Shown one piece after another: positions 57 to 15,216 of a stretch of 20,475 nt of DNA. Below the pieces are notes generated by a model, which was not told the origin of the DNA, ran no database searches, and was given only the letters and a program-made list of their open reading frames with translations. The stretch covers positions 1 to 20,475 of IMG/VR virus record IMGVR_UViG_3300032308_000947, one strand, 5' to 3'. Position numbers and translations under genes: made by a program. Numbering within the stretch: the stretch's first letter is position 1; each line of letters begins with the position of its first letter. The DNA is from a virus.

Positions 57-132
57 GCGGATGTAGCGCAATTGGTAGCGCACCACCTTGCCAAGGTGGA
101 TGTTGCGAGTTCGAGTCTCGTCATCCGCTCCA
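57..132 (+). tRNA. tRNA-Gly (anticodon GCC)
   Basis: A complete cloverleaf can be folded. The acceptor stem pairs gcggatg (57-63) with catccgc (122-128). A D arm follows, then an anticodon stem ccacc/ggtgg around the loop ttgccaa, giving anticodon GCC, and a T arm with loop ttcgagt. The discriminator base is T129 and CCA (130-132) is encoded. No integrase gene is visible in the window, so nothing supports use as an attachment site. It probably supplements glycine decoding during infection. Confidence 0.95.
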
Positions 133-1277: not shown

Positions 1278-1955
1278 ATGGGCAAAAAAGTTAAAATTAT
1301 AAAATTTGAAAAGTTTCTACCTGAGTTTCTTGATTTACAATCAAGTAAACCTAATATCCCAAAATGGTATAAAGATCTACCAGAATATAATGGACCAGAT
1401 ATCTGGATAGATAAAAGCATAAAATTTTGTATGCCGTTTTTAGACTCTCTAACAAGTGGGTATATGATTCCCTTACAAGTTGATGTGCATGTAAAACAAA
1501 TTGATGGAAATCCCCTTTTTACTTGGGGTAATGGAAACCTTGAGATAGTACATATAAGATCAGAAAAAGATGCCTTTATTCCAGTTCCCCCTGGATACTC
1601 CTTACTAAAACCTGCTTGGAAATTACCGTTGGCTTTAGAATTACCAAAAGGATATAGCATGTTAGTAACACACCCTTTAAATCGTTTTGATCTTCCATTT
1701 ATTACCGTGAGTGCAATTATTGATGACTTTAAACAACCTAATGGAAGTATGCCTTTTATGATTAAAAAAGGTTTTGAAGGATTAATTGAGGCAGGAACAC
1801 CTATCGCTCAAATAATTCCTTTTAAAAGAGAAAATTGGAAAAAAGAAAATTCTCCAGGATTAAAGGAAGCGTCACTAGTAAATGGATTTAGAAGTATAGG
1901 TTCTCTACGAGGTTGGTATAAGCATACCTTTTGGAAACGAAAGACTTACGAATAA
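1278..1955 (+). CDS. Conserved phage protein, paralogue A (related to 7497-8237)
   Basis: A 225-residue protein with no signal peptide or membrane segment. It is clearly homologous to the minus-strand product at 7497-8237. Shared blocks, in order: P-x-W-(Y/W)-K near residue 30, C-M/T-P-hxDxLxSGY (about 50-60), a central beta-rich part with PPGYSLL / PLGYSNI, GYSMLVTHP (about 127-135), DLPF/DLPL, and a C-terminal signature KGFEGLIEAGTPIAQIIPFK followed by R-E/D-N-W-K. The pattern (P-x-GYS, then IxxGTPIxQxxPFKRxxW) is reminiscent of DUF6065-type proteins, but I hold that weakly. The fold is probably all-beta. No catalytic residues are evident. It stands alone upstream of the effector cassette, whose other side is bounded by its paralogue in opposite orientation. 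Confidence 0.7.
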   Translation: MGKKVKIIKFEKFLPEFLDLQSSKPNIPKWYKDLPEYNGPDIWIDKSIKFCMPFLDSLTSGYMIPLQVDVHVKQIDGNPLFTWGNGNLEIVHIRSEKDAFIPVPPGYSLLKPAWKLPLALELPKGYSMLVTHPLNRFDLPFITVSAIIDDFKQPNGSMPFMIKKGFEGLIEAGTPIAQIIPFKRENWKKENSPGLKEASLVNGFRSIGSLRGWYKHTFWKRKTYE

Positions 1956-2021: not shown

Positions 2022-2537
2022 ATGGCCAGATATGCAGAATTCCAAGACTCAGCAGGAAGACACTACGTTGAGCACGATATGCCTGAAGAGACGGCATACA
2101 AGCATCCAATTCGTTCCTACGGTGATGCACGTCGTCTTTCTGTATATGATCCAAAAGATTCAACGCCAAGAACAGTTGATCCAAAAGGTGGCGGAGTTAG
2201 AGAGAATCCAAAGGGTGAACCAGGATTAGTTGGTTACTCAGATTTCTATCGTGAGCCTGTTCGTGATTCTGGTATTACATTTGTAACTAAAGATCAAAAA
2301 GGCAATGAGGTACGTGAGAAATCAAAGCCAATTGCAGATACTAATATCGGCTACATGCGTGTACATGAGCAGTATAAAGGCGGAGGAATTGGCCGCCAGA
2401 TGTTTGATTACATGCACAAGACAACTCCAGAAGGATCAATCCTAAATGTAGGCAAGGCAGCATCTAATGAGACTCTACATATGTCTGAGAAGTTAAAGAA
2501 AGAGAAGCCAGATTCAATCAAGTATAAGTTGTTCTAA
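2022..2537 (+). CDS. GNAT-family N-acetyltransferase-like protein
   Basis: A 171-residue protein. Residues 109-131 fit GNAT motif A: a beta-strand (IGYMRVHEQY) followed by the acetyl-CoA pyrophosphate loop Q117-Y-K-G-G-G-I-G and helix RQMFDYM. Downstream, LNVGKAASNETLHMSEKL resembles the beta-5/helix region with an Asn and a following amphipathic helix. The first 100 residues are polar, Pro/Gly/Lys-rich and not recognisable, so the substrate-binding half is atypical. No Shine-Dalgarno precedes ATG 2022. It overlaps the next gene by one base (TAATG), making it first in a coupled operon. The substrate cannot be told from sequence; host protein acetylation is one possibility given the neighbours. 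Confidence 0.7.
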   Translation: MARYAEFQDSAGRHYVEHDMPEETAYKHPIRSYGDARRLSVYDPKDSTPRTVDPKGGGVRENPKGEPGLVGYSDFYREPVRDSGITFVTKDQKGNEVREKSKPIADTNIGYMRVHEQYKGGGIGRQMFDYMHKTTPEGSILNVGKAASNETLHMSEKLKKEKPDSIKYKLF

Positions 2538-2995
2538 TGGCCGCTGAAGATAATCTTTCTATAGCGTTATTTCATGGAACTATGCAAAAGTTTAAAAAGG
2601 GAGATATCATTCGTCCTGCTGCTCAACTAAACCAAGAAAGTAATTGGGGTTATGCACCTCATAGTTCTGCTTTTGCAACTGAGCATTTAGGGACTGCAAA
2701 GTTCTTTGCAAACAGTAGTTACATAAAAGAGTCATCTCCTAGTTTTGAAGAATCACAAAATATGAGTGTTAAAGAGTTTATTAGTAAATTACCTAAATCT
2801 AAACCAAGAATAGACCGAGTCTATGAGGTAGAGCCACTAGGTCCTACAAAATTAAAGAATCTATCTAAAAGTAGAGCAAAGAATGCTGAAGCAATTGTAG
2901 AACATTCAAGCACCGAAGGTTTTAAAGTTAAAAAGCAAGTGTGGAGAAAACCACGCACAGATAATGATGTACCACGACCAAAGGGGTTAAATTGA
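2537..2995 (+). CDS. Arr-type ADP-ribosyltransferase-like protein 1
   Basis: A 152-residue protein resembling rifampin ADP-ribosyltransferase (Arr) in overall plan. After the N-terminal leader MAAEDNLS come LFHGTMQKFKKGDIIRP (residues 11-27; His13 would be the NAD-binding His), SSAFATEHLGTAKFFA (about 43-58; Arr has YFTA here, so the usual Tyr is Phe46), VYEVEPLGP (95-103, matching VY-x-VEPTG of Arr) and HSSTEGFKV near the end, where Arr has a similar strand. The acidic residue that follows VEPTG in Arr (DDPN region) is not apparent. The fold call is well supported; enzymatic activity is doubtful. A 27-residue insertion rich in Ser/Lys separates the second and third motifs. It overlaps its neighbours on both sides. 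Confidence 0.7.
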   Translation: MAAEDNLSIALFHGTMQKFKKGDIIRPAAQLNQESNWGYAPHSSAFATEHLGTAKFFANSSYIKESSPSFEESQNMSVKEFISKLPKSKPRIDRVYEVEPLGPTKLKNLSKSRAKNAEAIVEHSSTEGFKVKKQVWRKPRTDNDVPRPKGLN

Positions 2996-3303
2996 GTAAC
3001 CTCTCCCAACAGCAATTCGGCCCCATGTACCATGGCACTCGTGCAGATGTAAGTGGTGGCTTTATATTTCCTGCTGTCACTGAAGGTGAAGGCCGTATGG
3101 CTCGTGCATGGGCTACAAGTGATCCAGGACAAGCAAGATTTTTTGGCGAGACTAAGATGCCAAAAGGCGCTGAGAAGAATCCAGTGAAAGTTTACAAGGT
3201 AGAACCAGTTAGCAAGGAAGTTAAAGAAGAATCTGGGAACATAGAGGGTGAACGCTTCTATTCCTCCCCTCACGGGTTTATGATTACTGGAGAACACAAA
3301 TGA
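2992..3303 (+). CDS. Arr-type ADP-ribosyltransferase-like protein 2 (short)
   Basis: A 103-residue protein with a TTG start overlapping the previous stop (TTGA). The start is supported by the leader SNLSQQQF, shared with later genes. Then MYHGTRADVSGG (His14), ARAWATSDPGQARFFGE (37-53), VKVYKVEPVS (65-74) and RFYSSPHGFMITGE (88-101). The last segment closely parallels the C-terminal strand of Arr. It is shorter than Arr (about 140 aa), with compact loops. As in the preceding gene, the Tyr of the H-Y-D/E triad is replaced, here by Trp or Ala in AWAT. It may be a divergent enzyme or a non-catalytic NAD/ADP-ribose binder. Confidence 0.68.
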   Translation: MSNLSQQQFGPMYHGTRADVSGGFIFPAVTEGEGRMARAWATSDPGQARFFGETKMPKGAEKNPVKVYKVEPVSKEVKEESGNIEGERFYSSPHGFMITGEHK

Positions 3304-3431
3304 GCGCCAAATACTCACGTAGCGAACCATTTAACAAGATGCAGATTAAAGATGGCTGGATAGTCATCATGCGAAAAGATGGCACAGTTAAATCACGCCT
3401 TGAGCCATACCGACCAAAGGTTAAAAAATAA
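3300..3431 (+). CDS. Small basic protein of unknown function
   Basis: A 43-residue ORF. Its ATG overlaps the preceding TGA (ATGA) and its TAA overlaps the next ATG by one base (TAATG), a strong argument that it is translated. It is basic, with a beta-hairpin-like centre, IKDGWIVIMRKDGTVKSR, and ends PYRPKVKK. The hairpin with GW...DGT resembles short beta-rich DNA- or protein-binding modules, but no family is recognised. Confidence 0.6.
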   Translation: MSAKYSRSEPFNKMQIKDGWIVIMRKDGTVKSRLEPYRPKVKK

Positions 3432-3835
3432 TGTATGAGTATCGTGTAAAGAAGGTTAACAAGATAGTTGATGGCGATACTATTGATGTTGATATTGATC
3501 TAGGCTTTGCCGTCTCATTTACACAGCGGGTTCGTCTTGCAGGTATTGACACACCTGAGAGCCGAACAACTGATCTGAAAGAAAAAGCCCTCGGCTTGGA
3601 AGTAAAAGAGAAAATTAAAAAAGAAATAGCGGCGGCGAAAGATATCGTCATTAAGACAGAGAAGCCAGACTCATCAGAGAAGTACGGAAGAATCCTAGGT
3701 TGGCTATTCTTAGACGGTGCAGATGTGTCGCTTAATCAGAAACTAATCAATGAAGGTTATGCTTGGACATATGGTGGCGGCACGAAGATTAAAGATTTTG
3801 ATGAATTAATAGCAAAGAGACAGGTGAACCCATGA
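3431..3835 (+). CDS. Staphylococcal-nuclease-like (SNase) endonuclease
   Basis: A 134-residue thermonuclease-family protein covering the whole OB-fold domain. Motifs: KIVDGDTIDVDIDLG (residues 11-25), VRLAGIDTPESR (34-45), and KYGRILGWLF (84-93). The catalytic residues known for the family are all present: Arg35, Glu43 and Arg87, with Ca2+ ligands Asp21, Asp40 and Thr41. LNQKLINEGYAW (101-112) matches the conserved C-terminal helix. There is no signal peptide, so the enzyme would act in the host cytoplasm or inside the virion rather than be secreted. It should cleave DNA or RNA with Ca2+. It sits between effector-like genes and overlaps its neighbours, so host nucleic acid degradation is a reasonable inference. 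Confidence 0.9.
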   Translation: MYEYRVKKVNKIVDGDTIDVDIDLGFAVSFTQRVRLAGIDTPESRTTDLKEKALGLEVKEKIKKEIAAAKDIVIKTEKPDSSEKYGRILGWLFLDGADVSLNQKLINEGYAWTYGGGTKIKDFDELIAKRQVNP

Positions 3836-3996
3836 CGACTATGTGTGAGCATGTCTACAAGAGTATGGGCGTAACGCTGTGCCCTAAGTGCGGCCTCGAC
3901 ACTAACGACACTAATTGGGATAAACAAAACAACTTAATGAAGCAATGGCATATAGATAATCCTAATGCTAAGTATGCGGGATGGATGTCAATATGA
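3832..3996 (+). CDS. Small zinc-ribbon-like protein
   Basis: A 54-residue ORF overlapping the preceding and following stop/start codons (ATGA at both ends). It contains CEH near the N-terminus (Cys5, His7) and LCPKCGLDTND (Cys17, Cys20), a plausible Cys/His zinc site, followed by WDKQNNLMKQWHIDNPNAKY. The C-terminal half resembles short conserved segments in other phage mini-proteins but I cannot name it. Confidence 0.6.
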   Translation: MTTMCEHVYKSMGVTLCPKCGLDTNDTNWDKQNNLMKQWHIDNPNAKYAGWMSI

Positions 3997-4226
3997 GTTC
4001 AAAGAAGTGGATTCCACATCCAACAGATAAGTGGCAAGTTGACTGGCACTCCCTTAAGTATCATAAGCATGCCATGACTTTTGAAGAGTCTAATGCATTT
4101 ATGTCTACACCTAATGAAGATGGCTCACATAAGAGTCGTCTTGATTTTCACAAACACCTACATGATCAAGAAAAATTTGGCCTCGGCGAGCCTCATGATC
4201 ACTTTACTCCCAAGGATAAGAAATGA
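3993..4226 (+). CDS. Small His-rich hydrophilic protein, unknown
   Basis: A 77-residue ORF from ATG 3993, chosen because it makes an ATGA overlap with the previous gene like its neighbours; an in-frame ATG at 3981 would add four residues. It is rich in His, Lys and Asp, with a conserved-looking block WHSLKYHKHAMTFEESNAFM and an end FHKHLHDQEKFGLGEPHDHF. Eleven histidines could bind metal, but no known motif is present. No membrane segment or signal is seen. Confidence 0.6.
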   Translation: MSSKKWIPHPTDKWQVDWHSLKYHKHAMTFEESNAFMSTPNEDGSHKSRLDFHKHLHDQEKFGLGEPHDHFTPKDKK

Positions 4227-4477
4227 AGAAGAAGGGTTTTTCAAAGAGTGGTTATTCTAGATCTTCTTACGGAAAAAAATCCGTTCAGGAAAGGTTTAAG
4301 GTTAAAGATGTGAATGAAGAGGGTGGTCCTGACTTTATTTCTGCATGGGTTAATAACAACTTAAATAAGACACAGATGTCTAATGCTGAGGGAATTAAAG
4401 ATTTGATGCAAGGACCAAAATTAGGTTACAACGTGAAGAAGCGCAAAACATCTGAACCAAAGGAAGAAGATGAGTAA
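4223..4477 (+). CDS. Small charged protein, unknown
   Basis: An 84-residue ORF overlapping the previous stop (ATGA). The N-terminus is Lys/Ser/Gly/Tyr-rich (KKKGFSKSGYSRSSYGKK) and probably disordered; a helical centre (PDFISAWVNNNLNKTQMSNA) follows and the C-terminus is charged (KKRKTSEPKEEDE). The next gene starts 8 nt before its stop, and its purine-rich aaaggaagaag is the ribosome-binding site for that gene. No family is recognised. Confidence 0.6.
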   Translation: MKKKGFSKSGYSRSSYGKKSVQERFKVKDVNEEGGPDFISAWVNNNLNKTQMSNAEGIKDLMQGPKLGYNVKKRKTSEPKEEDE

Positions 4478-4859
4478 TCTATCTCCTAAACAATTTCATG
4501 TATTTCGTGGGTTACAAACTAATGCCTCTGGAATACAAAAAAATATACTGGGAGTTCATTGGACTGATAACCCAGATGTAGCAGAAGATTTTGGAAGTGG
4601 CAAGGGTCTAGGCGGCTATGCAAGTCATCGTGCATCTTATAAAGGTCCCTACTCGGTTATACACGCAACAACAACCAAAAATGCCGTAGAAAGAAACCCA
4701 AAGAAATTACAGACCTATGACATTGCTATGGATGCCGAAGAAGATGAGGTACCTTTAAAAGAAAACGTTAAAGTTAAAGTTCACTCAATAACAACCGTGC
4801 ATCCTAATAAACGTGAAAGAATGCGCCGATATAAAACTCCACGAGAGATGACTACATGA
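4470..4859 (+). CDS. R-S-E type ADP-ribosyltransferase-like protein 1
   Basis: A 129-residue protein with leader MSNLSPKQFH. The pattern matches arginine-ADP-ribosyltransferase-like domains: strand 1 VFRGL with Arg13; LGVHWTDNPDVAEDFG (residues 28-42) in place of the S-T-S strand, followed by the usual helix; SVIHATTTKNAV; and E91-D92-E93 in EEDEVPLKENVKVKVHSI, equivalent to the catalytic ExE loop and the final strand. The tail reads RRYKTPREM. It is shorter than typical 150-200 aa catalytic domains, but the three NAD/catalytic positions are in the right order. It shares this plan with the next two genes. Likely activity is transfer of ADP-ribose to a host protein; the target is unknown. Confidence 0.7.
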   Translation: MSNLSPKQFHVFRGLQTNASGIQKNILGVHWTDNPDVAEDFGSGKGLGGYASHRASYKGPYSVIHATTTKNAVERNPKKLQTYDIAMDAEEDEVPLKENVKVKVHSITTVHPNKRERMRRYKTPREMTT

Positions 4860-5209
4860 GTAACTTATCTCCTAAACAGTTTCATACTCTTTATCGTGGT
4901 TTAAGTTTTACTACAGATGTAAAAAAACCCCTCGGCATGCACTGGACAGATGATCCAGAGAGAGCCGTTGGCTTTGCAAGAAATCCTATTCGGCGAGGAC
5001 CTGGCGTTGTAATTGAAGGACAAGTGGCTAAGAGGAGTCGTGAGACTCGCTCTGATGTATTACAGAAAAATCAAGTATATGACGAGTATTGGGAGAATGA
5101 AGTTCCTGTTAAGAAGGGCAGCACCGTCCACGTAACTGCTGTTACTAAGTTAAGTGATAACCGAGATCGCACACGCACATACAATCCACCAAGGAAGTGG
5201 AAAGCATAA
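4856..5209 (+). CDS. R-S-E type ADP-ribosyltransferase-like protein 2
   Basis: A 117-residue paralogue of its neighbours, beginning with the identical leader MSNLSPKQFH. Motifs: LYRGL with Arg14, LGMHWTDDPERAVGFA (residues 26-41), VVIEGQVAKRS, then E80-N81-E82 in YWENEVPVKKGSTVHVTAV, and tail RTRTYNPPRKWKA. It is the most compact of the three. ATGA overlap with the preceding gene and a TAATG junction with the next. Catalytic residues Arg, Thr and ExE are all retained. Confidence 0.7.
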   Translation: MSNLSPKQFHTLYRGLSFTTDVKKPLGMHWTDDPERAVGFARNPIRRGPGVVIEGQVAKRSRETRSDVLQKNQVYDEYWENEVPVKKGSTVHVTAVTKLSDNRDRTRTYNPPRKWKA

Positions 5210-5673
5210 TGGCTGCTGAAGATAACTTATCTAAACAACAATGGAATCAGTCAGAATTAACTTTTCAAGTACACCGTGGTGTAACTCGTAAGTTTAAAAA
5301 AGATGCGCCACTTGGAATGCACTGGTCAGCAGATCCTCAAGTAGCAAGAAGATTTGCTGGATCCTTTGGCACCGTCATGCATGCCGAAGTTCCTATCAGT
5401 GCTGTAGAGATGAACACTCAAAAACTAAGTCGTGCTCAAGTTGATTTAAGAGATAAAGCAATGAAACGTCCAGAAAAAGAAGTTCCAGTTAAACCTGGCG
5501 CAAAAGTAAAAGTTACAGGTATCTCTGGACCTGAAGCAGATCCTGTTACAGGTAATTGGAATGGATTAAGAAGAAATGATTCTCCAACCTTCTCTTCTTG
5601 GGTAGCAGGTAAAGACAGCAAACGTCCTGCAAGAAAACGCACATATAAAAATCCTAAAGAGATGCAAGCATGA
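5209..5673 (+). CDS. R-S-E type ADP-ribosyltransferase-like protein 3
   Basis: A 154-residue paralogue. The ATG at 5209 is chosen over a GTG 12 nt upstream because it overlaps the previous TAA by one base and gives the leader MAAEDNLSKQQW, matching MAAEDNLS of the gene at 2537. Motifs: VHRGV with Arg23, LGMHWSADPQVARRFA (35-50), VMHAEVPISAVEMN, E89-K90-E91 in PEKEVPVKPGAKVKVTGI, and tail RTYKNPKEMQA. A roughly 30-residue insertion (residues 107-139) separates the ExE strand from the tail and is absent from the two shorter paralogues. The R, S and ExE residues are intact. Confidence 0.72.
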   Translation: MAAEDNLSKQQWNQSELTFQVHRGVTRKFKKDAPLGMHWSADPQVARRFAGSFGTVMHAEVPISAVEMNTQKLSRAQVDLRDKAMKRPEKEVPVKPGAKVKVTGISGPEADPVTGNWNGLRRNDSPTFSSWVAGKDSKRPARKRTYKNPKEMQA

Positions 5674-6131
5674 GTAGAAGTCAAGAATTTTCTCACGGAG
5701 TCTGGAAACAAGAGCCGTTAATTCATACACCCAGAGAATTAACTCATCTTGCAAAAAGCCTTACATCTGATAGCCATCCTGATTTAGGAACTGGAAGTCC
5801 GTTTAACACTAATGAGTTAGGGTATCTTGCTGGAGATAAATGGTCTGCAGAAGGAGAGTGTGACAAGGCTTGTCGTATGGTGCATGACTATCTTCCTCAC
5901 GGTTCTCATGTAAAAGAGTATCGAGATTCAAATGCTAATAATTATCAATTTGGAAATCACTATGTGCACCATGTTCCTACTACTGAAGGTATGCACGTAG
6001 TTGATTACACGCATCGTCAATTTAATGCACGGGCTAAATTTCCAGTAATTGAACCTCAAGAAAAATTTGAAGCACGTAAATCAATGCAACGATTCTCTAA
6101 AAATCGAGATGTGGATTACCGAGTTTTATGA
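5670..6131 (+). CDS. Papain-like Cys-His-Asp protein 1 (putative protease/amidase effector)
   Basis: A 153-residue protein. GECDKACRMVHDYL (residues 61-74) gives a nucleophile candidate, Cys64, at the start of a helix; FGNHYVHHV (94-102) gives His97; MHVVDYTHRQF (108-118) gives Asp112. Spacing and the G-x-C-x2-A ... H-[YW] ... [VL]D-x-T-x2-QF pattern match the gene at 6637-6993, so the two share a fold. This order is that of papain-like or transglutaminase/glutaminase-like enzymes. Whether it cleaves peptides or deamidates is not decidable. The N-terminus reads MSRSQEFSHGVW, close to the C-terminal QFSHGVEW of the gene at 16421. ATGA overlaps on both sides. Confidence 0.55.
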   Translation: MSRSQEFSHGVWKQEPLIHTPRELTHLAKSLTSDSHPDLGTGSPFNTNELGYLAGDKWSAEGECDKACRMVHDYLPHGSHVKEYRDSNANNYQFGNHYVHHVPTTEGMHVVDYTHRQFNARAKFPVIEPQEKFEARKSMQRFSKNRDVDYRVL

Positions 6132-6640
6132 ATAATTTAAATCAAAAACAATTCCATGTTCCTGTTCCTGATAATGTTCAAGTAAGAAAAGCAGGTGGCA
6201 AGGGTCATCTTGAAGGAGATCCGTCAGAGAGTGCTACTGGCATGGTTAGGACTGAGCGCTTAATTCCTTTAATGGAACACAGACGTCTTGGTTCTGATGC
6301 TCAGCCTTCTAGTTCTAAAGTTATTGCTGGAATTAGAGGAGACATTAAAAGTGGCAAAGGTATTAACAATCCAATTATGGTTGCATATGATCATTCTAAT
6401 AAGTGGGGCGTTGTTGGAGAGGGTCACCATAGATTAGAGGCTGCAATGGCAGAGGGCGTCTCCCATGTGCCAGTAACAGTTTATCGTCAGCCAGGATTAG
6501 GTGAACGAAAAGAAAACTTCTTAGGTAATCACTTAGCAATGACTACTAACTTTACTGATAAAGGAAGTTACGAAGATCGTATGGGCAAAGAGTATGTTCC
6601 TACTAATATTCACCCTGGACACTTTAAGCAGTTTCAATGA
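6128..6640 (+). CDS. ParB/Srx-fold nucleotide-binding domain protein
   Basis: A 170-residue protein beginning MNNLNQKQFH, a variant of the cassette leader. Residues 63-117 fit a ParB/sulfiredoxin-like domain: IRGDIKSGKGINNPIMVAYD, then VVGEGHHRLEAA (Gly97, Glu98, His100-His101-Arg102) and GVSHVPVTVY. In this fold the G-E-G-[HN]-H/R-R box binds nucleotide phosphates (CTP in ParB, ATP in sulfiredoxin and some phage kinases). There is no DNA-binding helix-turn-helix, so it is not a partition ParB. About 50 polar residues follow, ending GHFKQFQ. The activity is unknown; nuclease, kinase or CTPase are all known from this fold. Confidence 0.75.
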   Translation: MNNLNQKQFHVPVPDNVQVRKAGGKGHLEGDPSESATGMVRTERLIPLMEHRRLGSDAQPSSSKVIAGIRGDIKSGKGINNPIMVAYDHSNKWGVVGEGHHRLEAAMAEGVSHVPVTVYRQPGLGERKENFLGNHLAMTTNFTDKGSYEDRMGKEYVPTNIHPGHFKQFQ

Positions 6641-6993
6641 ACAATTACGATCATCAAATAGTTTCTAATGTTAGAGAGCATCTAACTGATGACTTACGTA
6701 GTGCAAAGTTTCGTGGACACGAGTGCAAGACCGCTGGACATTGCTACGTCGCCAGTGAGGCGGTCTATCACGCACTTGGTGGTAAGGCTGCTGGATATAC
6801 TCCAATGCAGATTAAGCATGAAGGAAATAGTCACTGGTTCTTAAAGCATTCATCAGGAAAGATACTTGATGCAACCTCAGATCAATTCGCAACTGCAGTT
6901 CCTTATGAGAAAGCCAAGGGAAGAGGCTTCCTCACTAAGGAGCCATCTAGACGTGCAAAGACATTAATGAGTCGTCTGGAATCGAATCCTTAA
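6637..6993 (+). CDS. Papain-like Cys-His-Asp protein 2
   Basis: A 118-residue protein. GHCYVASEAVYHALGG (residues 34-49) provides Cys36, NSHWFLKH provides His66, and GKILDATSDQF (74-84) provides Asp78; the order and local pattern match a papain/transglutaminase-like catalytic triad and the gene at 5670. After the triad, VPYEKAKGRGFLTKEPSRRA is typical of a small phage family I recognise only by pattern, not by name. It starts within the previous stop (ATGA). Its last 47 bases overlap the end of the convergent gene on the minus strand. Confidence 0.6.
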   Translation: MNNYDHQIVSNVREHLTDDLRSAKFRGHECKTAGHCYVASEAVYHALGGKAAGYTPMQIKHEGNSHWFLKHSSGKILDATSDQFATAVPYEKAKGRGFLTKEPSRRAKTLMSRLESNP

Positions 6994-7496: not shown

Positions 7497-8237
7497 TTAT
7501 TTATATGACTTTTTAGACCAATGATTTCTTACATAATTGTTAATAAGATTTTTATTAAAATTTTTATCTTCAAGTTTTTCATATTCACCATTTTTTAAAT
7601 AATTAAACTCTGTTTTCCAATTATCTCGTTTAAATGGAGTTAATTGAATTAAAGGAGTTCCTGCTTCAATAACTCCTTCAAATCCTTCCTTTATCCACAT
7701 TGGAGGAATTATTTCTAACTGACTTTTATCACTATCAATAATTGCTGGTATTGCATAAAGTGGCAAATCTTTATAACCAAAAGGTGAAGTTACTAGTACA
7801 GAATAACCATTTGGTGTATGAGGAATCCATGTATTTATATATTTAAACACAATGTTTGAATATCCTAATGGAGCAGGTATTTGTCTTGAACTGAATCCAT
7901 GTTGAGTAAATATACCTAAAGGATACTGTACTCTCCAAGTTATTCTAGGAAAATAATTAGAATTTTCATCTTTAATTTGTCTTACTTGGACATCAGCCCA
8001 TAGAGTAATAATATAACCAGAGACTAAAGCATCTAACATTGGAGTACATTTTTTAAAGGTTGCGTTAGCCTCTTTATTTTCAACTATTAAAGACTTACCT
8101 TCTGGATTATAAGGAGTTACGTCATATGGGGTCATAGATTTCCACCATTGTGGAACCAAGGTGGATGCAGGGACTGGTTTATTTTGAACAGCCCATCCAT
8201 ATTCATCTCTAGCAGTAAAAGTTATAGTATTAGTCAT
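7497..8237 (-). CDS. Conserved phage protein, paralogue B (related to 1278-1955)
   Basis: A 246-residue protein homologous to the plus-strand product at 1278-1955 throughout: PQWWKSMTPY, CTPMLDALVSGYIITLWADV, PAPLGYSNIV, NGYSVLVTSPFGYKDLPLYA, IPAIIDSD, and the C-terminal WIKEGFEGVIEAGTPLIQLT then PFKRDNWK. It is about 20 residues longer, mostly at the N-terminus and in a loop after the central tryptophan. DNA similarity is much lower than protein similarity, so the duplication is old or the copies were acquired separately. A TAGATT box ends 6 nt before its ATG and no ribosome-binding site is present. The function is unknown. Confidence 0.7.
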   Translation of the reverse strand: MTNTITFTARDEYGWAVQNKPVPASTLVPQWWKSMTPYDVTPYNPEGKSLIVENKEANATFKKCTPMLDALVSGYIITLWADVQVRQIKDENSNYFPRITWRVQYPLGIFTQHGFSSRQIPAPLGYSNIVFKYINTWIPHTPNGYSVLVTSPFGYKDLPLYAIPAIIDSDKSQLEIIPPMWIKEGFEGVIEAGTPLIQLTPFKRDNWKTEFNYLKNGEYEKLEDKNFNKNLINNYVRNHWSKKSYK

Positions 8238-9126: not shown

Positions 9127-9672
9127 ATGACAACCATCATCGGAGTACAGTACGAAGACCGATGCATCTTGTTAGCAGACAATCAAGTAACAGATGAAAG
9201 TGGTCGTATCTATCGACATCCACAAATGGCAAAAATTAACGAACGTGGTGATTTTATAATTGCTGGTTCTGGAGAAGTATCTCCCTGTGATATTGCTCAA
9301 CACATTTGGAATCCGCCAAAATTAACCGCCAAAGATGCAAAAGATATCTATCACTTCATGATTGCAAAGGCAATGCCTTCCTTTAGGAAATGTCTAACTG
9401 AAAATGGATATGATTTTAACGAGGACCATGACAAATCTAAAGAAGGATTAAGGTTTCAATTTTTAATGGCTGTTGGTGGCGAGATCTTTGATATTGACCA
9501 AGATCTTTCGGTAATGAGAAGTATGGATGGCAAATATGCTGTTGGTTCTGGGGCTACCTATGCCTTGGGTGCGTTACATGCTGGAGTTAAACCAATGAAG
9601 GCTATGGAAATTGCTGCAAAACTTACAGCCTTTACTTCAGGTCCATACATTGAAAAGGAACAACTTAAGTAA
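9127..9672 (+). CDS. Proteasome beta / HslV-like Ntn-hydrolase
   Basis: A 181-residue protein resembling the proteasome-type N-terminal-nucleophile hydrolase fold. After Met, TTIIGVQYEDRCILLADNQVT would expose Thr2 as nucleophile once Met is removed; an Asp follows at the position of Asp17 (ADN), then a Lys in MAKINERGDFIIAGSGE near the position of Lys33 and the G-S-G loop. YAVGSGATYALGALHAG (about 139-155) matches the GSG loop and following helix of proteasome beta subunits, and the C-terminus (MEIAAKLTAFTSGPYIE) matches the next helix-strand. No ATPase partner is in the window. Roles could be phage-protein maturation or host protein degradation. A strong purine-rich site (gaaggggg) precedes the ATG. 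Confidence 0.82.
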   Translation: MTTIIGVQYEDRCILLADNQVTDESGRIYRHPQMAKINERGDFIIAGSGEVSPCDIAQHIWNPPKLTAKDAKDIYHFMIAKAMPSFRKCLTENGYDFNEDHDKSKEGLRFQFLMAVGGEIFDIDQDLSVMRSMDGKYAVGSGATYALGALHAGVKPMKAMEIAAKLTAFTSGPYIEKEQLK

Positions 9673-9880: not shown

Positions 9881-10843
9881 GTGATATCACTGAAAAAAAT
9901 CGCACTTGTCTGTGCTGCAGCATTGACAAGCACAGTTCTTTTAGTTCCATCAGCAAATGCAAATGTATTAACTCTAACCGTTAATGGTTCAGCAGCAACT
10001 GGAGGCACAGCAGCAACTGCTCCTATAGCACTTCCTGTTCCAGCAGATAACAGCGTTGATTTAGCAGATGCATTAAAGATTGCTGTAACAGGTTTAGATA
10101 CTGGTACAGTTGTTACTGCTGTTGCTACAAATGCAACATTAGTGCCAGCCGTAGCAACTTCTACTGCTCCAGTTACTGCATCCTCTGGAACTGCAAGTCT
10201 TTCTATTAGTACAGGAACTGGCACCACTGCTGATATTTTTGTTTATACAAAAACAACTGCAGTAGGATCTGTTGCTGTAACTATCCGTGGAAATACAACT
10301 ACATACTACGTGCAAGGAACTGCTGGTGCTCTTAATGCAATTGCACTAACCGCACCTGATTCAGCAGCGGCTGGAAGTACTCAATCATTAAAGGTAACTG
10401 GATACGATGTATTTGGAAACTTAAAAGGTGGAGCATCTATCAATGCTGTTGTAAGCAATGGGTCTACAGCCTCTGCAACTACTTTAACAACTGACACTGT
10501 TACAGCAACTAACGGAACTAAGACATTTGATGTTGTAATTCCAGCAGCAGGTCAAGTTACTGTAATTGTTTATGCAACTGTTGCTACTGCAATTGCTGGC
10601 ATGTCAACTCCTGTTGGATCAGTTAGCAAAAACATTGCTATTCGTGATCTTGCAGGTGAGTTAGCAGCAGTCCAAGCAGCACTTGCAGCAGAGAAGGTTG
10701 GTCGTGCCGCTGATAAAGCAGCCTATGACTCAGCCACCGCAACTGCTACTAAGCAGATTGCTGATCTAAATGCAGCAATTGCAAGTCTAAAAGCCTTGTA
10801 TAACAAGTTGGCTAAGAAGTACAAATTAAAGACTATTAAGTAG
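9881..10843 (+). CDS. Secreted Ala/Thr/Val-rich surface-type protein with coiled-coil C-terminus
   Basis: A 320-residue protein with a GTG start supported by ttaaggag. Residues 1-27 form a clear Sec signal peptide: KK at positions 5-6, a hydrophobic core ALVCAAALTSTVLLV, and an A-x-A site (ANA) before NVLTLTVNG. Residues 28-255 are beta-rich Ala/Thr/Val/Gly repeats resembling bacterial Ig-like domains. Residues 256-308 form a coiled coil (LAGELAAVQAALAAEKVGRA, later IADLNAAIASLKALYNKLAK), and the end is basic (KYKLKTIK). This plan is that of an actinobacterial cell-surface protein rather than a virion protein. It may be a host-derived moron altering the cell surface, or a fibre. No anchor or LPXTG motif is present. 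Confidence 0.75.
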   Translation: MISLKKIALVCAAALTSTVLLVPSANANVLTLTVNGSAATGGTAATAPIALPVPADNSVDLADALKIAVTGLDTGTVVTAVATNATLVPAVATSTAPVTASSGTASLSISTGTGTTADIFVYTKTTAVGSVAVTIRGNTTTYYVQGTAGALNAIALTAPDSAAAGSTQSLKVTGYDVFGNLKGGASINAVVSNGSTASATTLTTDTVTATNGTKTFDVVIPAAGQVTVIVYATVATAIAGMSTPVGSVSKNIAIRDLAGELAAVQAALAAEKVGRAADKAAYDSATATATKQIADLNAAIASLKALYNKLAKKYKLKTIK

Positions 10844-12123: not shown

Positions 12124-12330
12124 ATGTCTACTACCTTAGAAACGCACAGGCCTATTGAAGTAGTTGAGAGGTGCGACAAATGTGGAGCCCAAGCAATGGT
12201 TCGTGCCACACTGGCAAGTGGTGAACTTTATTTTTGTGGTCATCACGCAAGAGGAACTGCTAATAAGTTAGTTTCGCAAGCCATAGTTGTGTACGACCCT
12301 AGTGGAGTATTTAATTATGGCAGGCAGTGA
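12124..12330 (+). CDS. DUF7455-like actinobacterial Cys/His zinc protein
   Basis: A 68-residue protein whose pattern CDKCGAQAMVRATLASGELY, then FCGHHARG, matches the small actinobacterial DUF7455 family: Cys17, Cys20, Cys38 and His40/His41 as zinc ligands. This family is nearly confined to Actinobacteria and their phages, which supports the host assignment. The start is leaderless. Its last 14 bases overlap the next gene. Confidence 0.82.
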   Translation: MSTTLETHRPIEVVERCDKCGAQAMVRATLASGELYFCGHHARGTANKLVSQAIVVYDPSGVFNYGRQ

Positions 12331-12682
12331 TTACTACCGTACTGGCAAAGGAATATTTGGCGGACCAGGTGGCACATATGGAAGATATGGAGTGAGTCAA
12401 ATGGCAGGTAATCTATCTTCTCAATTTGATAAAGCAGAAAACACAGAAGAAAAACAACGTCGTAGATTTGGACGTAAACGTGAGTCAGGATATTCGGGCG
12501 CAGGATTTTGGTTTGCTAACTACCCGTACATGATTGGTGCAATGAGTTCTGGTACAGATCCTCGTGAAGGAACAATACCTGGCAGAGAACAAGGAATGAA
12601 TGATTCAGGTGAATCTGCTTCAAACAATAGTGGACTAGGAAGTGGCGGAACTGCCGCAGGATTTGTTGGAGGATTAGATTAA
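12317..12682 (+). CDS. Gly/Ser-rich protein of unknown function, probable virion component
   Basis: A 121-residue protein from ATG 12317, with ggag 9 nt upstream inside the previous gene. It is Gly/Tyr-rich at the N-terminus (GGPGGTYGRYG), then charged and basic (EEKQRRRFGRKRES), with an aromatic central block (GFWFANYPYMIGAMSSGTDP) and a Gly/Ser/Asn-rich C-terminus. It is low-complexity and lacks membrane or catalytic motifs. Its place at the head of the structural-type module suggests a minor virion protein, which is inference. It overlaps the next gene by one base. Confidence 0.6.
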   Translation: MAGSDYYRTGKGIFGGPGGTYGRYGVSQMAGNLSSQFDKAENTEEKQRRRFGRKRESGYSGAGFWFANYPYMIGAMSSGTDPREGTIPGREQGMNDSGESASNNSGLGSGGTAAGFVGGLD

Positions 12683-12930: not shown

Positions 12931-15216
12931 TTGAAAATACTGCGTCCATTCGCAGCACTATCTGTAGTACGTAATATTGGAAGACTTATTTTATGTGGAG
13001 GAGTTGTTACTCTCTTCCTTGTATTTGGCATGTCTCAAGAGGTTTATGCTGAAGACAATCAAGAACAAGTTGTGGTAAGTCCTGCTCAACAAGCCGTTAA
13101 CTCAGCACTTGCTACAGCAACTACAGAAGTACAGCAGGCTATTGCAGCCACAGATACTGCCACAGCAGTTATAGCCGCAGCCATTGTTGAAAAAACTCAG
13201 GTTCAAGCAGCGGTAGATTCCGTAACCGTTCTAGTTGCAGTAGCACAAGACAAAGTAGATGTTGCTCAATCTGCCATAGATATAGTCACTGCAATTGATA
13301 CATCGACTGTTCAAATAAAACAAGACTCTCTAGTTATTGTTGATGCACAAACAAGTGTTATAAATGCAACAAATGCTATTAATGCCATCGACACCTCTAC
13401 GGCACAAATACAAATTACTGAATTAATTGTTGCCAAGGCTCAAGCAGACACTGCAACAGCCACTGCTCAAACCGAACTAACCCAAGCAAACATTGCAATT
13501 GATAATGCCCAAACAGCAGTAAATAACTTACAAGCCACAATTGGAACTAGTACAAATGTTCTTGCTGGCGTAGATGATGCTGGAGTTAGAATGAATCTAC
13601 CATTTGATTTATTAATGGGTGGGACTCTTTACAACAATGTTTATGTAGGATCAAATGCAACAGTTACATTTGGTGTAAATCAAGGTAGCACATACCATAC
13701 GACACCAAATGCTCCGTCAATTTCTATTGCAGGTTGGGATTGGACAACTTGGAGTACAGGAACTGGAATTACATATGCAACAACAGAATCTACCTTAGAT
13801 ATTGCTTGGGACTTAAGGCCGTATCCACAACAGGATGCTTCTACACAGATGGTTCAAGTAAGATTTAATGCTGATGTAAATCCAGTTAACGGTGCATGGA
13901 AAGCAGATGTAACTGCAAATGGTCCAATACCAAATCAAGCAAGATTTAATATTAGAGAAACAACTAATGGTGCTATTACTCCTATTATTGATACAAATAT
14001 GGGCTCAGGATTTGCTGGACAAATAAGTCAGGGACCAGAGTTTACTCCAATTGTTAACAATAATACTTCAGGTATTCAAGCAGCAGTAGATGCAGCAAAT
14101 GCAACCATTGCACAATTAAACTCAAGCCTTACTCCAGTTGTTGCTCAAAATACAACTAATACAATCAACAAAAACAACATTGGTAGCACAAACTTTTTTA
14201 CTAATACTTTAACTTTAGCGTCATTAACAAAAACATCTCTTCAAGCAATATTAGATACTAAAGAAGCAGAATTAAACTTTGCAATTAGTTTAATTCCCGA
14301 GGTTGTTGTGGTTCCAGAACCTCAACCTTCTCCTCAGCCTCAACCAGAGCCAATCTTTGAAGGAGTCCCTGATTTTCAACCAGAGTTTGTTGAACCGCCT
14401 GTTGAAACCGTTCCTGACGTTCCTGTTGAAGAAGAGATACAACCAACCCCAGAACCTGAGACTGTTCCTGAGCCAGAACCAGAAGTCGATCTTGAGCCTG
14501 CTCCAGAGCCTGAATTAACTCCTGATGATTCATCTGAAACCTCCTTAGAAGAACAAGAGTCTATAGTAAGTGATTTTATGGATGATGGCGAATTATCAGA
14601 GTCTGATGCGCAAGCAGTGTTAGATGCTTTAAATTCAGATGGAGAAATTACTCAAGAAGAAGTAACTAATCTTGCAGAAATATTATCTGAAGATGGAGAG
14701 TTTACTGAAGCAGAACGAGAACTAGTTGCAGAAGCCTTAATTGAGTCTGCAGGTGAAGAAGCAGTGACTTCTGAAGCAATTAAAGAAGCAGGACTAACTT
14801 ATGAAGATTTACCAGCAGAAACTCCTGTTGAGGTTCGCCAAGATGAAAATGGTAATGAAGTTATAATTACTGCAGAAGTAGCAGCGGCACTTACTGTACT
14901 AGAAAGTCCTGCTGAATTTATTGGTGCAATATTTGATGATCCAGGACAAGCATTAACAGCCGTACTAAATATCGGTGCTGACATGTCTACTGAAGAGCGA
15001 GAAGAGTCAGAGAAAATTATTGTTGCAGCAGTAATTGCGGGACAAGCCGCTATTAATGCAGCAACAATGGCAGCAACAGGTGCTGCAACAACTGCCGCAG
15101 TTAGTGCAGCAGGAACTGCAACAGGAGGAACAACACCAACAAGTGGTGGAGGTGCTGGCGGTCCTGCCGCTGGCAATGACAAACCAAAGAGAACGGTTAG
15201 GAGACGTAAGCCGTGA
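12931..15216 (+). CDS. Large exported, coiled-coil/Pro-rich protein with EF-hand-like repeats (tail or surface protein)
   Basis: A 761-residue protein with a TTG start supported by gagggg. Residues 1-40 look like a signal peptide or anchor (GRLILCGGVVTLFLVFGM, then VYA before EDN). Residues 45-205 are Ala/Thr/Val-rich helical repeats containing two near-identical AIDTS-x2-QI blocks. Residues 210-375 form a beta-rich, Gly/aromatic domain (MNLPFDLLMGGTLYNNVYVG, later AGWDWTTWSTGTG). A second helical stretch follows, then a Pro-Glu repeat spacer (about 455-530). Residues 543-603 hold three DDGE/SDGE/EDGE helix-loop repeats resembling degenerate EF-hands. The C-terminus has hydrophobic Ala-rich helices and a Gly/basic tail. 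It is possibly a fibre or phage-encoded surface adhesin. Confidence 0.7.
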   Translation: MKILRPFAALSVVRNIGRLILCGGVVTLFLVFGMSQEVYAEDNQEQVVVSPAQQAVNSALATATTEVQQAIAATDTATAVIAAAIVEKTQVQAAVDSVTVLVAVAQDKVDVAQSAIDIVTAIDTSTVQIKQDSLVIVDAQTSVINATNAINAIDTSTAQIQITELIVAKAQADTATATAQTELTQANIAIDNAQTAVNNLQATIGTSTNVLAGVDDAGVRMNLPFDLLMGGTLYNNVYVGSNATVTFGVNQGSTYHTTPNAPSISIAGWDWTTWSTGTGITYATTESTLDIAWDLRPYPQQDASTQMVQVRFNADVNPVNGAWKADVTANGPIPNQARFNIRETTNGAITPIIDTNMGSGFAGQISQGPEFTPIVNNNTSGIQAAVDAANATIAQLNSSLTPVVAQNTTNTINKNNIGSTNFFTNTLTLASLTKTSLQAILDTKEAELNFAISLIPEVVVVPEPQPSPQPQPEPIFEGVPDFQPEFVEPPVETVPDVPVEEEIQPTPEPETVPEPEPEVDLEPAPEPELTPDDSSETSLEEQESIVSDFMDDGELSESDAQAVLDALNSDGEITQEEVTNLAEILSEDGEFTEAERELVAEALIESAGEEAVTSEAIKEAGLTYEDLPAETPVEVRQDENGNEVIITAEVAAALTVLESPAEFIGAIFDDPGQALTAVLNIGADMSTEEREESEKIIVAAVIAGQAAINAATMAATGAATTAAVSAAGTATGGTTPTSGGGAGGPAAGNDKPKRTVRRRKP

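What the first reader, a model, noticed from the sequence alone, without database searches (positions are those of the whole stretch)
2022..6993. A coupled operon of effector-like genes: GNAT, five ADP-ribosyltransferase-like, SNase, two papain-like and a ParB/Srx-fold protein
Fourteen plus-strand genes follow each other with almost every stop and start overlapping by 1, 4 or 8 nt. Most have folds that modify or degrade host macromolecules: two Arr-like proteins, three R-[ST]-ExE proteins, an intact SNase (Arg35/Glu43/Arg87), two Cys-His-Asp proteins, a GNAT and a ParB/Srx fold. T4 carries three ADP-ribosyltransferases (Alt, ModA, ModB), but five ART-like genes in 3 kb beside other effector folds is unusual. 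The inference is a dedicated host-takeover or virion-borne effector cassette.
Basis: partly seen in the sequence, partly recalled or inferred. Interest (0 to 1): 0.85.

Follow-up and report, generated by a model that had tools for sequence, protein, structure and literature searches.

The report
Shared tag on phage effector proteins
A group of uncultured phages, probably of actinobacteria, carries a swappable set of small enzyme genes that probably attack or rewire the host cell, and many of them begin with the same short peptide, which looks like a shipping label for loading them into the virus particle.

Summary
The cassette is real: 14 co-directional genes at 2022-6993, with 13 junctions overlapping by 1, 4 or 8 nt. 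Several enzyme assignments hold. Gene 4470 models as an R-S-E ADP-ribosyltransferase, 5670 as a papain-like, deamidase-type fold, 3431 is an SNase, and 6637 is YunG/papain-like. The Arr-like, GNAT 2022 and ParB calls are weaker.

Six of the 14 products begin with the same peptide, N-L-[S/N]-x-x-[Q/L]-[F/W], and a seventh with a degenerate form. In related IMG/VR loci it heads 188 distinct proteins in 17 cargo clusters: ART, Arr-like, GNAT, ParB/Srx, papain-like and unknown. The strict form occurs 144 times at N-termini and never in 133,199 later residues. Synonymous sites are randomised, so selection is on the protein. Relatives of several cassette domains are fused in single polyvalent proteins of cultured phages Tonenili and Mx1.

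Best reading: an unfused polyvalent effector arsenal whose members share a virion-targeting tag, working like the T4 and P1 capsid targeting sequences. Virion location is inferred, not shown.

The parts
2022..2537 (+). GNAT-like protein, no tag
   Evidence: Acetyltransf_7 18.7 bits, below cut-off 27; family present in 14 of 38 anchored loci, tagged in 0 of 14
2537..2995 (+). Arr-like ART candidate, tagged
   Evidence: Arr-ms E 0.0011, below cut-off; alignment A2
2552..2572 (+). tag NLSIALF (Q replaced by L)
   Evidence: sequence
2992..3303 (+). Arr-like (YHGT) ART candidate, TTG start, tagged
   Evidence: alignment A2; family profile best PDB hits are rifampin ARTs at E 0.033
2998..3018 (+). 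tag NLSQQQF
3300..3431 (+). 43-aa protein, untagged
   Evidence: family in 16 loci, 0 tagged
3431..3835 (+). SNase-fold nuclease with R35/E43/R87, untagged
   Evidence: PF00565 E 1.7e-13 and phrog_452 E 3e-45; residues; 0 of 16 tagged
3832..3996 (+). small Cys-containing protein, untagged
   Evidence: no Pfam hit at E 0.05; 0 of 23 tagged
3993..4226 (+). His-rich small protein, untagged here; relatives carry the tag
   Evidence: family F4, 9 of 25 tagged
4223..4477 (+). 84-aa protein, untagged
   Evidence: 0 of 20 tagged
4470..4859 (+). R-S-E class ADP-ribosyltransferase, tagged
   Evidence: AlphaFold2 pLDDT 79.5; VIA Z 7.1 TreX, 6.4 pertussis S1, 6.3 cholera A1
4476..4496 (+). tag NLSPKQF
4856..5209 (+). 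paralogous ART; R and ExE present, S/T position is V; tagged
   Evidence: (42% identity to 4470)
4862..4882 (+). tag NLSPKQF
5209..5673 (+). paralogous ART, tagged (start corrected from 5197)
   Evidence: (36% identity to 4470); weak match to phrog_3147 positions 105-178, E 0.0042
5224..5244 (+). tag NLSKQQW
5670..6131 (+). papain-like, deamidase-type fold (C64, H97/H100, D112); degenerate tag
   Evidence: alignment A5; model pLDDT 67, SseI Z 8.8, protein glutaminase Z 7.2, PMT Z 6.9
5685..5705 (+). degenerate tag EFSHGVW, aligned with NLSKGQW of relatives
6128..6640 (+). ParB/Srx-fold protein, tagged
   Evidence: PHROG ParB-like E 6.5e-5; matches the ParB segment of Tonenili gp97 and Colt gp73
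6134..6154 (+). tag NLNQKQF
6637..6993 (+). YunG/papain-like protein, untagged
   Evidence: PF24585 28.4 bits, cut-off 27; 56.5% identical to residues 12-119 of a 1479-aa Mx1 protein

Best explanation
The cassette is an unfused, shuffling version of a phage polyvalent effector protein. ARTs, acetyltransferases, ParB/Srx-fold and papain-like enzymes, which other phages string together in one polypeptide predicted to be injected, are here separate small genes translated in a coupled series next to the lysis and head genes. Physical fusion is replaced by a short shared N-terminal tag, L-[SNG]-x(1-2)-Q-[FW], usually preceded by N. The most likely role of the tag is to bind a head or virion component during assembly, so that whatever follows it is loaded into the particle and delivered with the DNA, where the enzymes modify host proteins or blunt defences. 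Shown: the cassette, the tag, its N-terminal confinement, its protein-level conservation, its presence on unrelated domains, tagged and untagged relatives, and homology of several domains to fused polyvalent proteins. Inferred: late expression, packaging, ejection and the host targets.
For: Strict tag NL[SN]..QF: 144 occurrences in the first 30 residues and 0 in the remaining 133,199 residues of 1,270 called genes in 50 loci; four permuted motifs gave 0 in both parts. 100 of the 144 lie beyond one per locus, so they are not explained by fetching loci through the tag. In the window alone 5 of 14 genes match the Q form, P about 8e-10 from the internal rate. Tagged cargo forms 17 clusters; 10 of the 38 families seen in 3 or more loci have tagged members. 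Third-position identity between clusters is 0.438 against about 0.455 expected from codon usage. Tagged and untagged relatives coexist. Homology to fused proteins: Tonenili gp97 (ParB 38-128, GNAT 166-258, ART 469-573, GNAT 599-727) and Mx1 (6637-like, GNAT, ART-PolyVal, NUDIX); 147 alignments from 671 queries against 2 for shuffled queries. Late-strand placement. T4 internal proteins share only a CTS (PMC3012670, passages); the first 30 residues of P1 DarB suffice for capsid targeting (PMC9024508, abstract and passages).
Against: I saw no virion proteomics for these phages, so packaging is not shown. Several cassette proteins are never tagged (SNase 0 of 16, GNAT 2022 0 of 14, 6637 family 0 of 13), and a phiCbK homologue of 6637 sits among replication genes. 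Tag-like N-termini also occur in a block with a queuine tRNA-ribosyltransferase-like gene, whose virion role is unknown. The tag runs straight into the first ART strand (residues 8-15), with no obvious cleavage site. Phages with related head or RNR genes lack the tag: BRock (first 100 of 112.5 kb) has none and the one match in DSL-LC01 is in an annotated glycosyltransferase. With a looser motif, two control motifs gave 3 N-terminal matches over the six contigs, against 30 for the tag.
Confidence: 0.6

Rival explanations
1. The tag is functional but is not a packaging signal. It is an N-terminal recognition peptide for something inside the infected cell, for example a degron or adaptor site for the phage HslV-like Ntn hydrolase or a host protease, or an anchor to a replication or host complex.
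For: An HslV-like gene lies about 2 kb downstream at 9127-9672, and proteasome-like genes occur in relatives; N-terminal degrons are known (recalled).
Against: DSL-LC01 encodes an annotated HslV homologue but has no tags, so the two do not go together. No HslU-like unfoldase was noticed, though none was searched for. A shared degron on effector folds has no clear purpose.
Confidence: 0.17
2. The tag is a DNA-level feature: a recombination landing pad, or a translation-enhancing start region shared by gene conversion, with no protein role.
For: Cassette content shuffles between loci and starts overlap upstream stops.
Against: Synonymous positions between cargo clusters are randomised to background level (0.438 against about 0.455), and 121 distinct tag DNA sequences encode the tag.
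Confidence: 0.05
3. The enzymes are made in the infected cell as ordinary late or lysogenic effectors, or as a 'Trojan horse' against grazing protists, and are not delivered by the particle.
For: Freshwater phage ARTs were proposed as toxins against eukaryotic grazers (PMC6802176, passages). An integrase in relative G001 suggests a temperate life style. The ART model resembles secreted toxins.
Against: The cassette also holds ParB/Srx and GNAT domains homologous to phage polyvalent proteins, which fits bacterial targets. The Trojan-horse idea does not explain one tag on unrelated folds.
Confidence: 0.15
4. The small proteins are minor structural components and the enzyme folds are coincidental or inactive.
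For: Low sequence similarity for several folds; a conserved late-region protein and other small proteins also bear tag-like motifs.
Against: Catalytic R and ExE are invariant in 16 of 16 ART rows, and C, H and D are invariant in 10 of 10 papain-like rows.
Confidence: 0.03

Closest known systems
T4 internal proteins and Alt with the capsid targeting sequence (CTS)
   Same: Diverse proteins sharing only a short N-terminal sequence (PMC3012670, passages); Alt is a head-packaged ART (PMC5512222, passages)
   Different: The tag here is L-S-x-x-Q-F, abuts the fold and has no visible cleavage site, whereas the 10-20 residue T4 CTS is removed by gp21 (PMC5694885, passages); the phages belong to another lineage (capsid of relative G001 60.7-63.1% identical to six Streptomyces phage records including BRock); packaging is not shown
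Phage polyvalent proteins (Iyer et al. 2017), including Tonenili gp97 and the Mx1 1479-aa protein
   Same: Shared domain repertoire with direct sequence homology for ParB, GNAT, ART and YunG-like domains; near late genes
   Different: Here each domain is a separate gene, often with a tag, instead of one fused chain; Iyer et al. mention solo versions (section 34), but no tag in the parts I read. That Tonenili gp97 and the Mx1 protein are polyvalent proteins is my reading of their domains; the records do not say so
P1 Dar proteins
   Same: Several packaged antirestriction proteins; N-terminal targeting in DarB
   Different: The authors found no consensus among Dar N-termini by BLAST (PMC9024508); here there is one
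SPN3US and other giant-phage head propeptides
   Same: N-terminal propeptides thought to target ejection proteins into the head; two diverged proteins share an identical N-terminus (PMC5694885, passages)
   Different: Those propeptides are mostly over 100 residues and are cleaved; here the tag is 6-7 residues on many unrelated folds
R-S-E ADP-ribosyltransferases (TreX/TreTu, pertussis S1, cholera A1, Scabin)
   Same: Fold and R/ExE residues of 4470
   Different: Minimal 117-154 aa single domains; 4856 lacks the S/T residue
MuF-linked phage effector domains
   Same: Effector domains tied to a head-associated element (MuF fusions are mentioned in PMC5512222, section 32)
   Different: No MuF hit in the 13 of 14 cassette proteins scanned with Pfam

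Membership tests
Polyvalent proteins | Two or more disparate domains in one polypeptide | tested here: not met
   14 separate ORFs
Polyvalent proteins | Domain repertoire shared with known polyvalent proteins | tested here: met
   ParB, GNAT, ART and YunG-like domains match Tonenili gp97, Colt gp73 and the Mx1 protein, one of which holds PF18760 ART-PolyVal
Polyvalent proteins | Gene near late or virion genes | tested here: met
   co-oriented with lysin, TerL, portal and capsid genes in G006 and, by homologous genes, in G001; the window itself holds the lysin but no recognised capsid gene
Polyvalent proteins | Injected with the DNA | not testable with these tools
   needs experiment
T4-type CTS-bearing internal proteins | Short N-terminal sequence shared by otherwise unrelated proteins | tested here: met
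T4-type CTS-bearing internal proteins | Present inside the virion | not testable with these tools
   no proteomics held
T4-type CTS-bearing internal proteins | CTS removed by prohead protease gp21 | not tested
   no protease or cleavage site was searched for systematically
T4-type CTS-bearing internal proteins | Sequence relationship to the T4 CTS | not tested
   T4 sequences were not compared
R-S-E ADP-ribosyltransferase (4470) | ART fold | tested here: met
   model pLDDT 79.5; listed matches dominated by ARTs, best Z 7.1; Z is moderate and no Foldseek E is below 0.001
R-S-E ADP-ribosyltransferase (4470, 4856, 5209) | Catalytic R, S/T and ExE | tested here: inconclusive
   R and ExE in 16 of 16 rows; S/T in 12 of 16, V in the 4856 type; which column is the catalytic S/T is my reading
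Arr rifampin ART, PF12120 (2537, 2992) | Pfam match above cut-off | tested here: inconclusive
   2537 19.6 bits against 25, 2992 no hit
SNase, PF00565 (3431) | Pfam match and catalytic R/E/R | tested here: met
   51.4 bits, residues
Papain-like fold (5670) | Conserved Cys, His and Asp on a papain-like core | tested here: met
   invariant C64, H97, H100, D112; SseI Z 8.8, rmsd 3.1, 118 aligned; pLDDT only 67; no Foldseek E below 0.001
YunG, PF24585 (6637) | Pfam match above cut-off | tested here: met
   28.4 bits, cut-off 27
GNAT (2022) | Pfam match above cut-off | tested here: inconclusive
   18.7 bits against 27
ParB/Srx (6128) | Match to ParB-like families | tested here: inconclusive
   no Pfam hit; PHROG E 6.5e-5; homology to a segment of Tonenili gp97
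Known anti-phage defence system | PADLOC hit to a defence protein | tested here: not met
   10 of 14 proteins scanned; only an SNase-type hit (3431) and a weak methyltransferase hit (6128, E 0.0022)

The most novel reading that the evidence does not exclude
These phages use one universal short N-terminal label that loads any attached domain into the particle. The phage thus evolves its injected arsenal by swapping tagged single-domain genes rather than by rebuilding a giant polyvalent protein, and the same motif in a conserved late-region protein (window 12287-12682) marks part of the docking system.
Probability: 0.5. Interest if true: 0.85.

Novelty: new variant of a known kind. Interest (0 to 1): 0.7.

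Why it matters
If the tag is a virion-targeting signal, any protein that begins with it can be read as injected cargo, turning many nameless small genes of these phages into predicted early-infection effectors. N-terminal capsid targeting is shown for T4 and P1 and proposed for giant phages such as SPN3US in the papers seen here; this would add a distant lineage with a clear consensus across many folds, which P1 lacks. It also gives a natural contrast between fused and unfused forms of related arsenals, a route to new effector folds (the unknown tagged clusters), and a possible delivery peptide for actinobacteria.

Tried and rejected
Searches that gave nothing: tblastn of 4470 in 50,697 phage records, no match at E <= 1; tag pattern in genome contigs of 84,980 species, 0 stretches; ART profile A1 in genome contigs, 22 pattern stretches, none a relative; ART profile A1 against PDB sequences, one chain at E 0.53, not an ART by its name; PADLOC, no defence system. 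Paper searches for the tag idea: 'polyvalent protein' + actinobacteriophage, 0; 'capsid targeting' + polyvalent + phage, 0; ejection/packaging-signal terms, 0, nothing relevant in 8 listed. Virion proteomics of phiCbK and Bxz1 was looked for in listings only, without a useful find. I saw no printed description of this tag in the listings or in the parts of the seven papers opened; most subscription papers are not held.

Rejected: DNA-level recombination pad or translation element (codon test); degron for the HslV-like protein (DSL-LC01 has HslV but no tags); chance (four permuted controls 0). A queuine tRNA-ribosyltransferase-like gene was first taken by me for a terminase and corrected. A DUF7178 protein in G006 with a tag-like NLAESQF start, compared with homologues in two Streptomyces phages, was too weak to use. 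An evolutionary tree, Rfam search and promoter scan were not run. The 5670 model has residues 1-16 and 42-60 under pLDDT 50. My simple gene caller lost tagged window genes 2537 and 2992, probably to opposite-strand ORFs, so its counts are low; searches use the genes read out one by one. Some of the 38 families are probably spurious ORFs.

Selection caveat: loci were fetched by tag patterns, and one search used one peptide overlapping the tag. The patterns left third codon positions free, but admit only TCN serine. Near-duplicate loci were removed before (71 held, 49 kept, plus the window); L001-L003 (parts of the window) and the named-phage loci were left out.

Full report
WHAT WAS CHECKED. 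The window is one whole IMG/VR virus record of 20,475 bases. Fourteen plus-strand genes fill 2022-6993, and all 13 junctions overlap by 1, 4 or 8 nt. I moved two of the listed starts (to 5209 and 3993); 2992 starts with TTG.

FOLDS. SNase 3431 is secure (R35, E43, R87). For 4470 a 16-sequence alignment gave a model of mean pLDDT 79.5. In the PDB comparison the 50 listed rows are dominated by ADP-ribosyltransferases and relatives: Rhs toxin TreX Z 7.1, pertussis S1 Z 6.4, cholera A1 Z 6.3, Tpt1 Z 5.7, Scabin Z 5.0. Foldseek ranks TreX, cholera and pertussis first but with no E below 0.001. 4856 and 5209 are homologues (42% and 36% identity). R13 and E91/E93 are invariant in 16 of 16 rows; the S/T position is V in 4 of 16, the 4856 type. 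The Arr-like pair 2537/2992 is weaker. 5670 has invariant C64, H97, H100 and D112 in 10 of 10 rows, and its model (pLDDT 67) is closest to the SseI deamidase (Z 8.8, rmsd 3.1, 118 aligned), then protein glutaminase (7.2) and the PMT C-terminal domain (6.9). That suggests a papain-like deamidase rather than a protease. 6637 is YunG. GNAT 2022 and ParB 6128 are weak as profiles, though 6128 aligns with a segment of two fused proteins.

THE TAG. The unreported feature is a shared N-terminal peptide. 4470 and 4856 begin MSNLSPKQF, 2992 [M]SNLSQQQF, 6128 MNNLNQKQF, 5209 MAAEDNLSKQQW, 2537 MAAEDNLSIALF; 5670 has a degenerate form, EFSHGVW, that aligns with NLSKGQW of its relatives. In 50 non-redundant loci (1,270 called genes), NL[SN]..QF occurs 144 times within the first 30 residues and 0 times in the remaining 133,199 residues; four permuted motifs occur 0 times in either part. 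One hundred of the 144 are beyond one per locus, and 37 of 50 loci have two or more. In the window, which was not chosen through the tag, 5 of 14 genes match L[SNG]x(1-2)Q[FW], P about 8e-10 from an internal rate of 20 in 107,755 residues measured on six longer contigs. In those six contigs the looser motif occurs at 4, 7, 7, 2, 9 and 1 N-termini (30 in all) against 0.34, 0.44, 0.56, 0.6, 0.23 and 0.1 expected; these counts include the genes through which the contigs were fetched and at least one probable chance match (a 481-aa protein of G002). Two control motifs gave 3 N-terminal matches in all. BRock (100 of 112.5 kb) has 0 and DSL-LC01 has 1, in an annotated glycosyltransferase.

CARGO. 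The 188 distinct tagged proteins fall into 17 clusters once the tag is removed (all 188 N-termini inspected): R-S-E type ARTs, Arr-like ARTs, GNATs, ParB/Srx proteins, papain-like proteins, a 43-aa peptide, His-rich small proteins and unknowns; six clusters are single proteins. In 38 loci with a lysin or HslV anchor, gene content and order vary. Ten of the 38 families seen in three or more loci have tagged members: R-S-E ART 49 of 54, Arr-like 38 of 41, GNAT 25 of 30, 43-aa peptide 14 of 16, ParB 20 of 49, His-rich 9 of 25, papain-like 4 of 13, and three small ones (3 of 8, 5 of 5, 5 of 5). SNase is 0 of 16, the 2022 family 0 of 14 and the 6637 family 0 of 13. Many 'untagged' members have variants such as MLNQKQF or HLGRQW, so the counts are conservative. 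Tagged and untagged relatives of one domain suggest that the tag is an add-on.

PROTEIN OR DNA? 121 distinct DNA sequences encode the tag. Between clusters, codons for the same residue share their third base in 2,639 of 6,020 comparisons (0.438; up to six proteins from each of 11 clusters), close to 0.455, the mean of the values expected for N, L, S, Q and F from codon usage. Selection therefore acts on the peptide.

RELATION TO POLYVALENT PROTEINS. Mycobacterium phage Tonenili gp97 (751 aa) carries in one chain domains homologous to the separate genes: ParB 38-128, GNAT 166-258, R-S-E type ART 469-573 and a second GNAT 599-727; Colt gp73 (504 aa) carries the ParB and a GNAT. They lie upstream of tRNA genes and the portal gene. 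A 1,479-aa Myxococcus phage Mx1 protein, about 3 kb past the capsid gene, starts with a domain 56.5% identical to 6637 and continues with GNAT, ART-PolyVal and NUDIX domains. ART 5209 (scanned with its longer start 5197) and ParB 6128 match different parts of PHROG 3147, the family of Tonenili gp97 and Colt gp73, though weakly (E 0.004 and 0.008). The 671 queries (cassette-zone ORFs, many redundant, plus window genes) gave 147 alignments to the three fused proteins, shuffled queries 2. No match to them was found for 4470, 4856, 2537, 2992 or 5670 themselves.

GENOME CONTEXT. In G006 the cassette shares its strand with lysin, terminase, portal and capsid genes, and G001 has the same order by homologous genes; integrase and WhiB are on the other strand (in G006 the last two were recognised by their N-termini only). 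WhiB in G001 (E 4.2e-17) points to an actinobacterial host, a marker used the same way in PMC6802176 (passages). A tail sheath gene shows a contractile tail in G006; the 2022 survey of viral NAD/ADP-ribose systems states that packaged ARTs are frequent in such phages (PMC9503650, abstract and passages). The G001 capsid and G006 portal are 60-63% identical to those of Streptomyces phage BRock and relatives. None of these marker genes is in the window itself, which joins the group through its cassette and late genes.

MECHANISM. [quoted passage not shown] In P1 the N-terminal 30 residues of DarB suffice to direct a reporter to the capsid, and its authors found no consensus among Dar N-termini (PMC9024508). 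Giant phages such as SPN3US are thought to use much longer propeptides in this way (PMC5694885, passages). The tag here fits that role: N-terminal, short, shared by unrelated enzymes of the injected kind and attached to rotating cargo. I put packaging or ejection targeting at about 0.6, and that the tag is a functional protein element at above 0.9. Packaging, late timing, cleavage and targets are inferred.

AGAINST. I saw no virion proteomics. Some cassette proteins never carry the tag. phiCbK keeps a 6637 homologue among replication genes. Tag-like starts also occur in a block with a queuine tRNA-ribosyltransferase-like gene of unknown virion role. A degron role is possible but does not track the HslV-like gene, since DSL-LC01 has one and no tags.

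VERDICT. The cassette and several folds are confirmed and the effector reading is supported in part. The stronger finding is the shared tag. Novelty: a new variant of a known kind, combining a CTS-like signal with an unfused polyvalent arsenal.

Noticed in passing
window 12287-12682: A conserved late-region protein contains the tag core NLSxQF internally in the window, G001 and G006; in G002 it directly follows a GTG codon that could be a start, though a TTG lies 22 codons upstream. It could be a structural protein using the same docking motif.
   Followed up: partly
window 9127-9672: HslV/proteasome-like Ntn hydrolase (phrog_1040 E 1.5e-25) beside the endolysin; proteasome-like genes also in relatives and an annotated HslV in DSL-LC01; no HslU-like partner was noticed.
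   Followed up: partly
window 1278-1955 (+) and 7497-8237 (-): Two divergent, similar proteins (the first phrog_7084) flank the cassette on opposite strands; related genes appear at shifting positions in other loci.
   Followed up: no
window 57-132: tRNA-Gly(GCC) at the left edge, about 2 kb before the cassette; relative G001 has a tyrosine-type integrase, so this could be an attachment site or a phage tRNA.
   Followed up: no
L085:13807-14049, L096:8076-8708, L016:14200-14409: Small proteins with tag-like N-termini (SLSSSQF, LSDAQF, NLSASQF) outside the cassette; the first and third lie in a block with a queuine tRNA-ribosyltransferase-like gene.
   Followed up: partly
L005:5383-5514 and relatives: A 43-aa family that is almost only the tag plus MPKEMYVNVAMQMTPPS..., 14 of 16 members tagged; a possible minimal packaged peptide.
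   Followed up: no
window 9881-10843 and 12931-15216: Ala/Thr/Val-rich proteins with starts that look like signal peptides by eye; 12931 had no Pfam or PHROG hit and 9881 only a weak DUF6384 hit.
   Followed up: no
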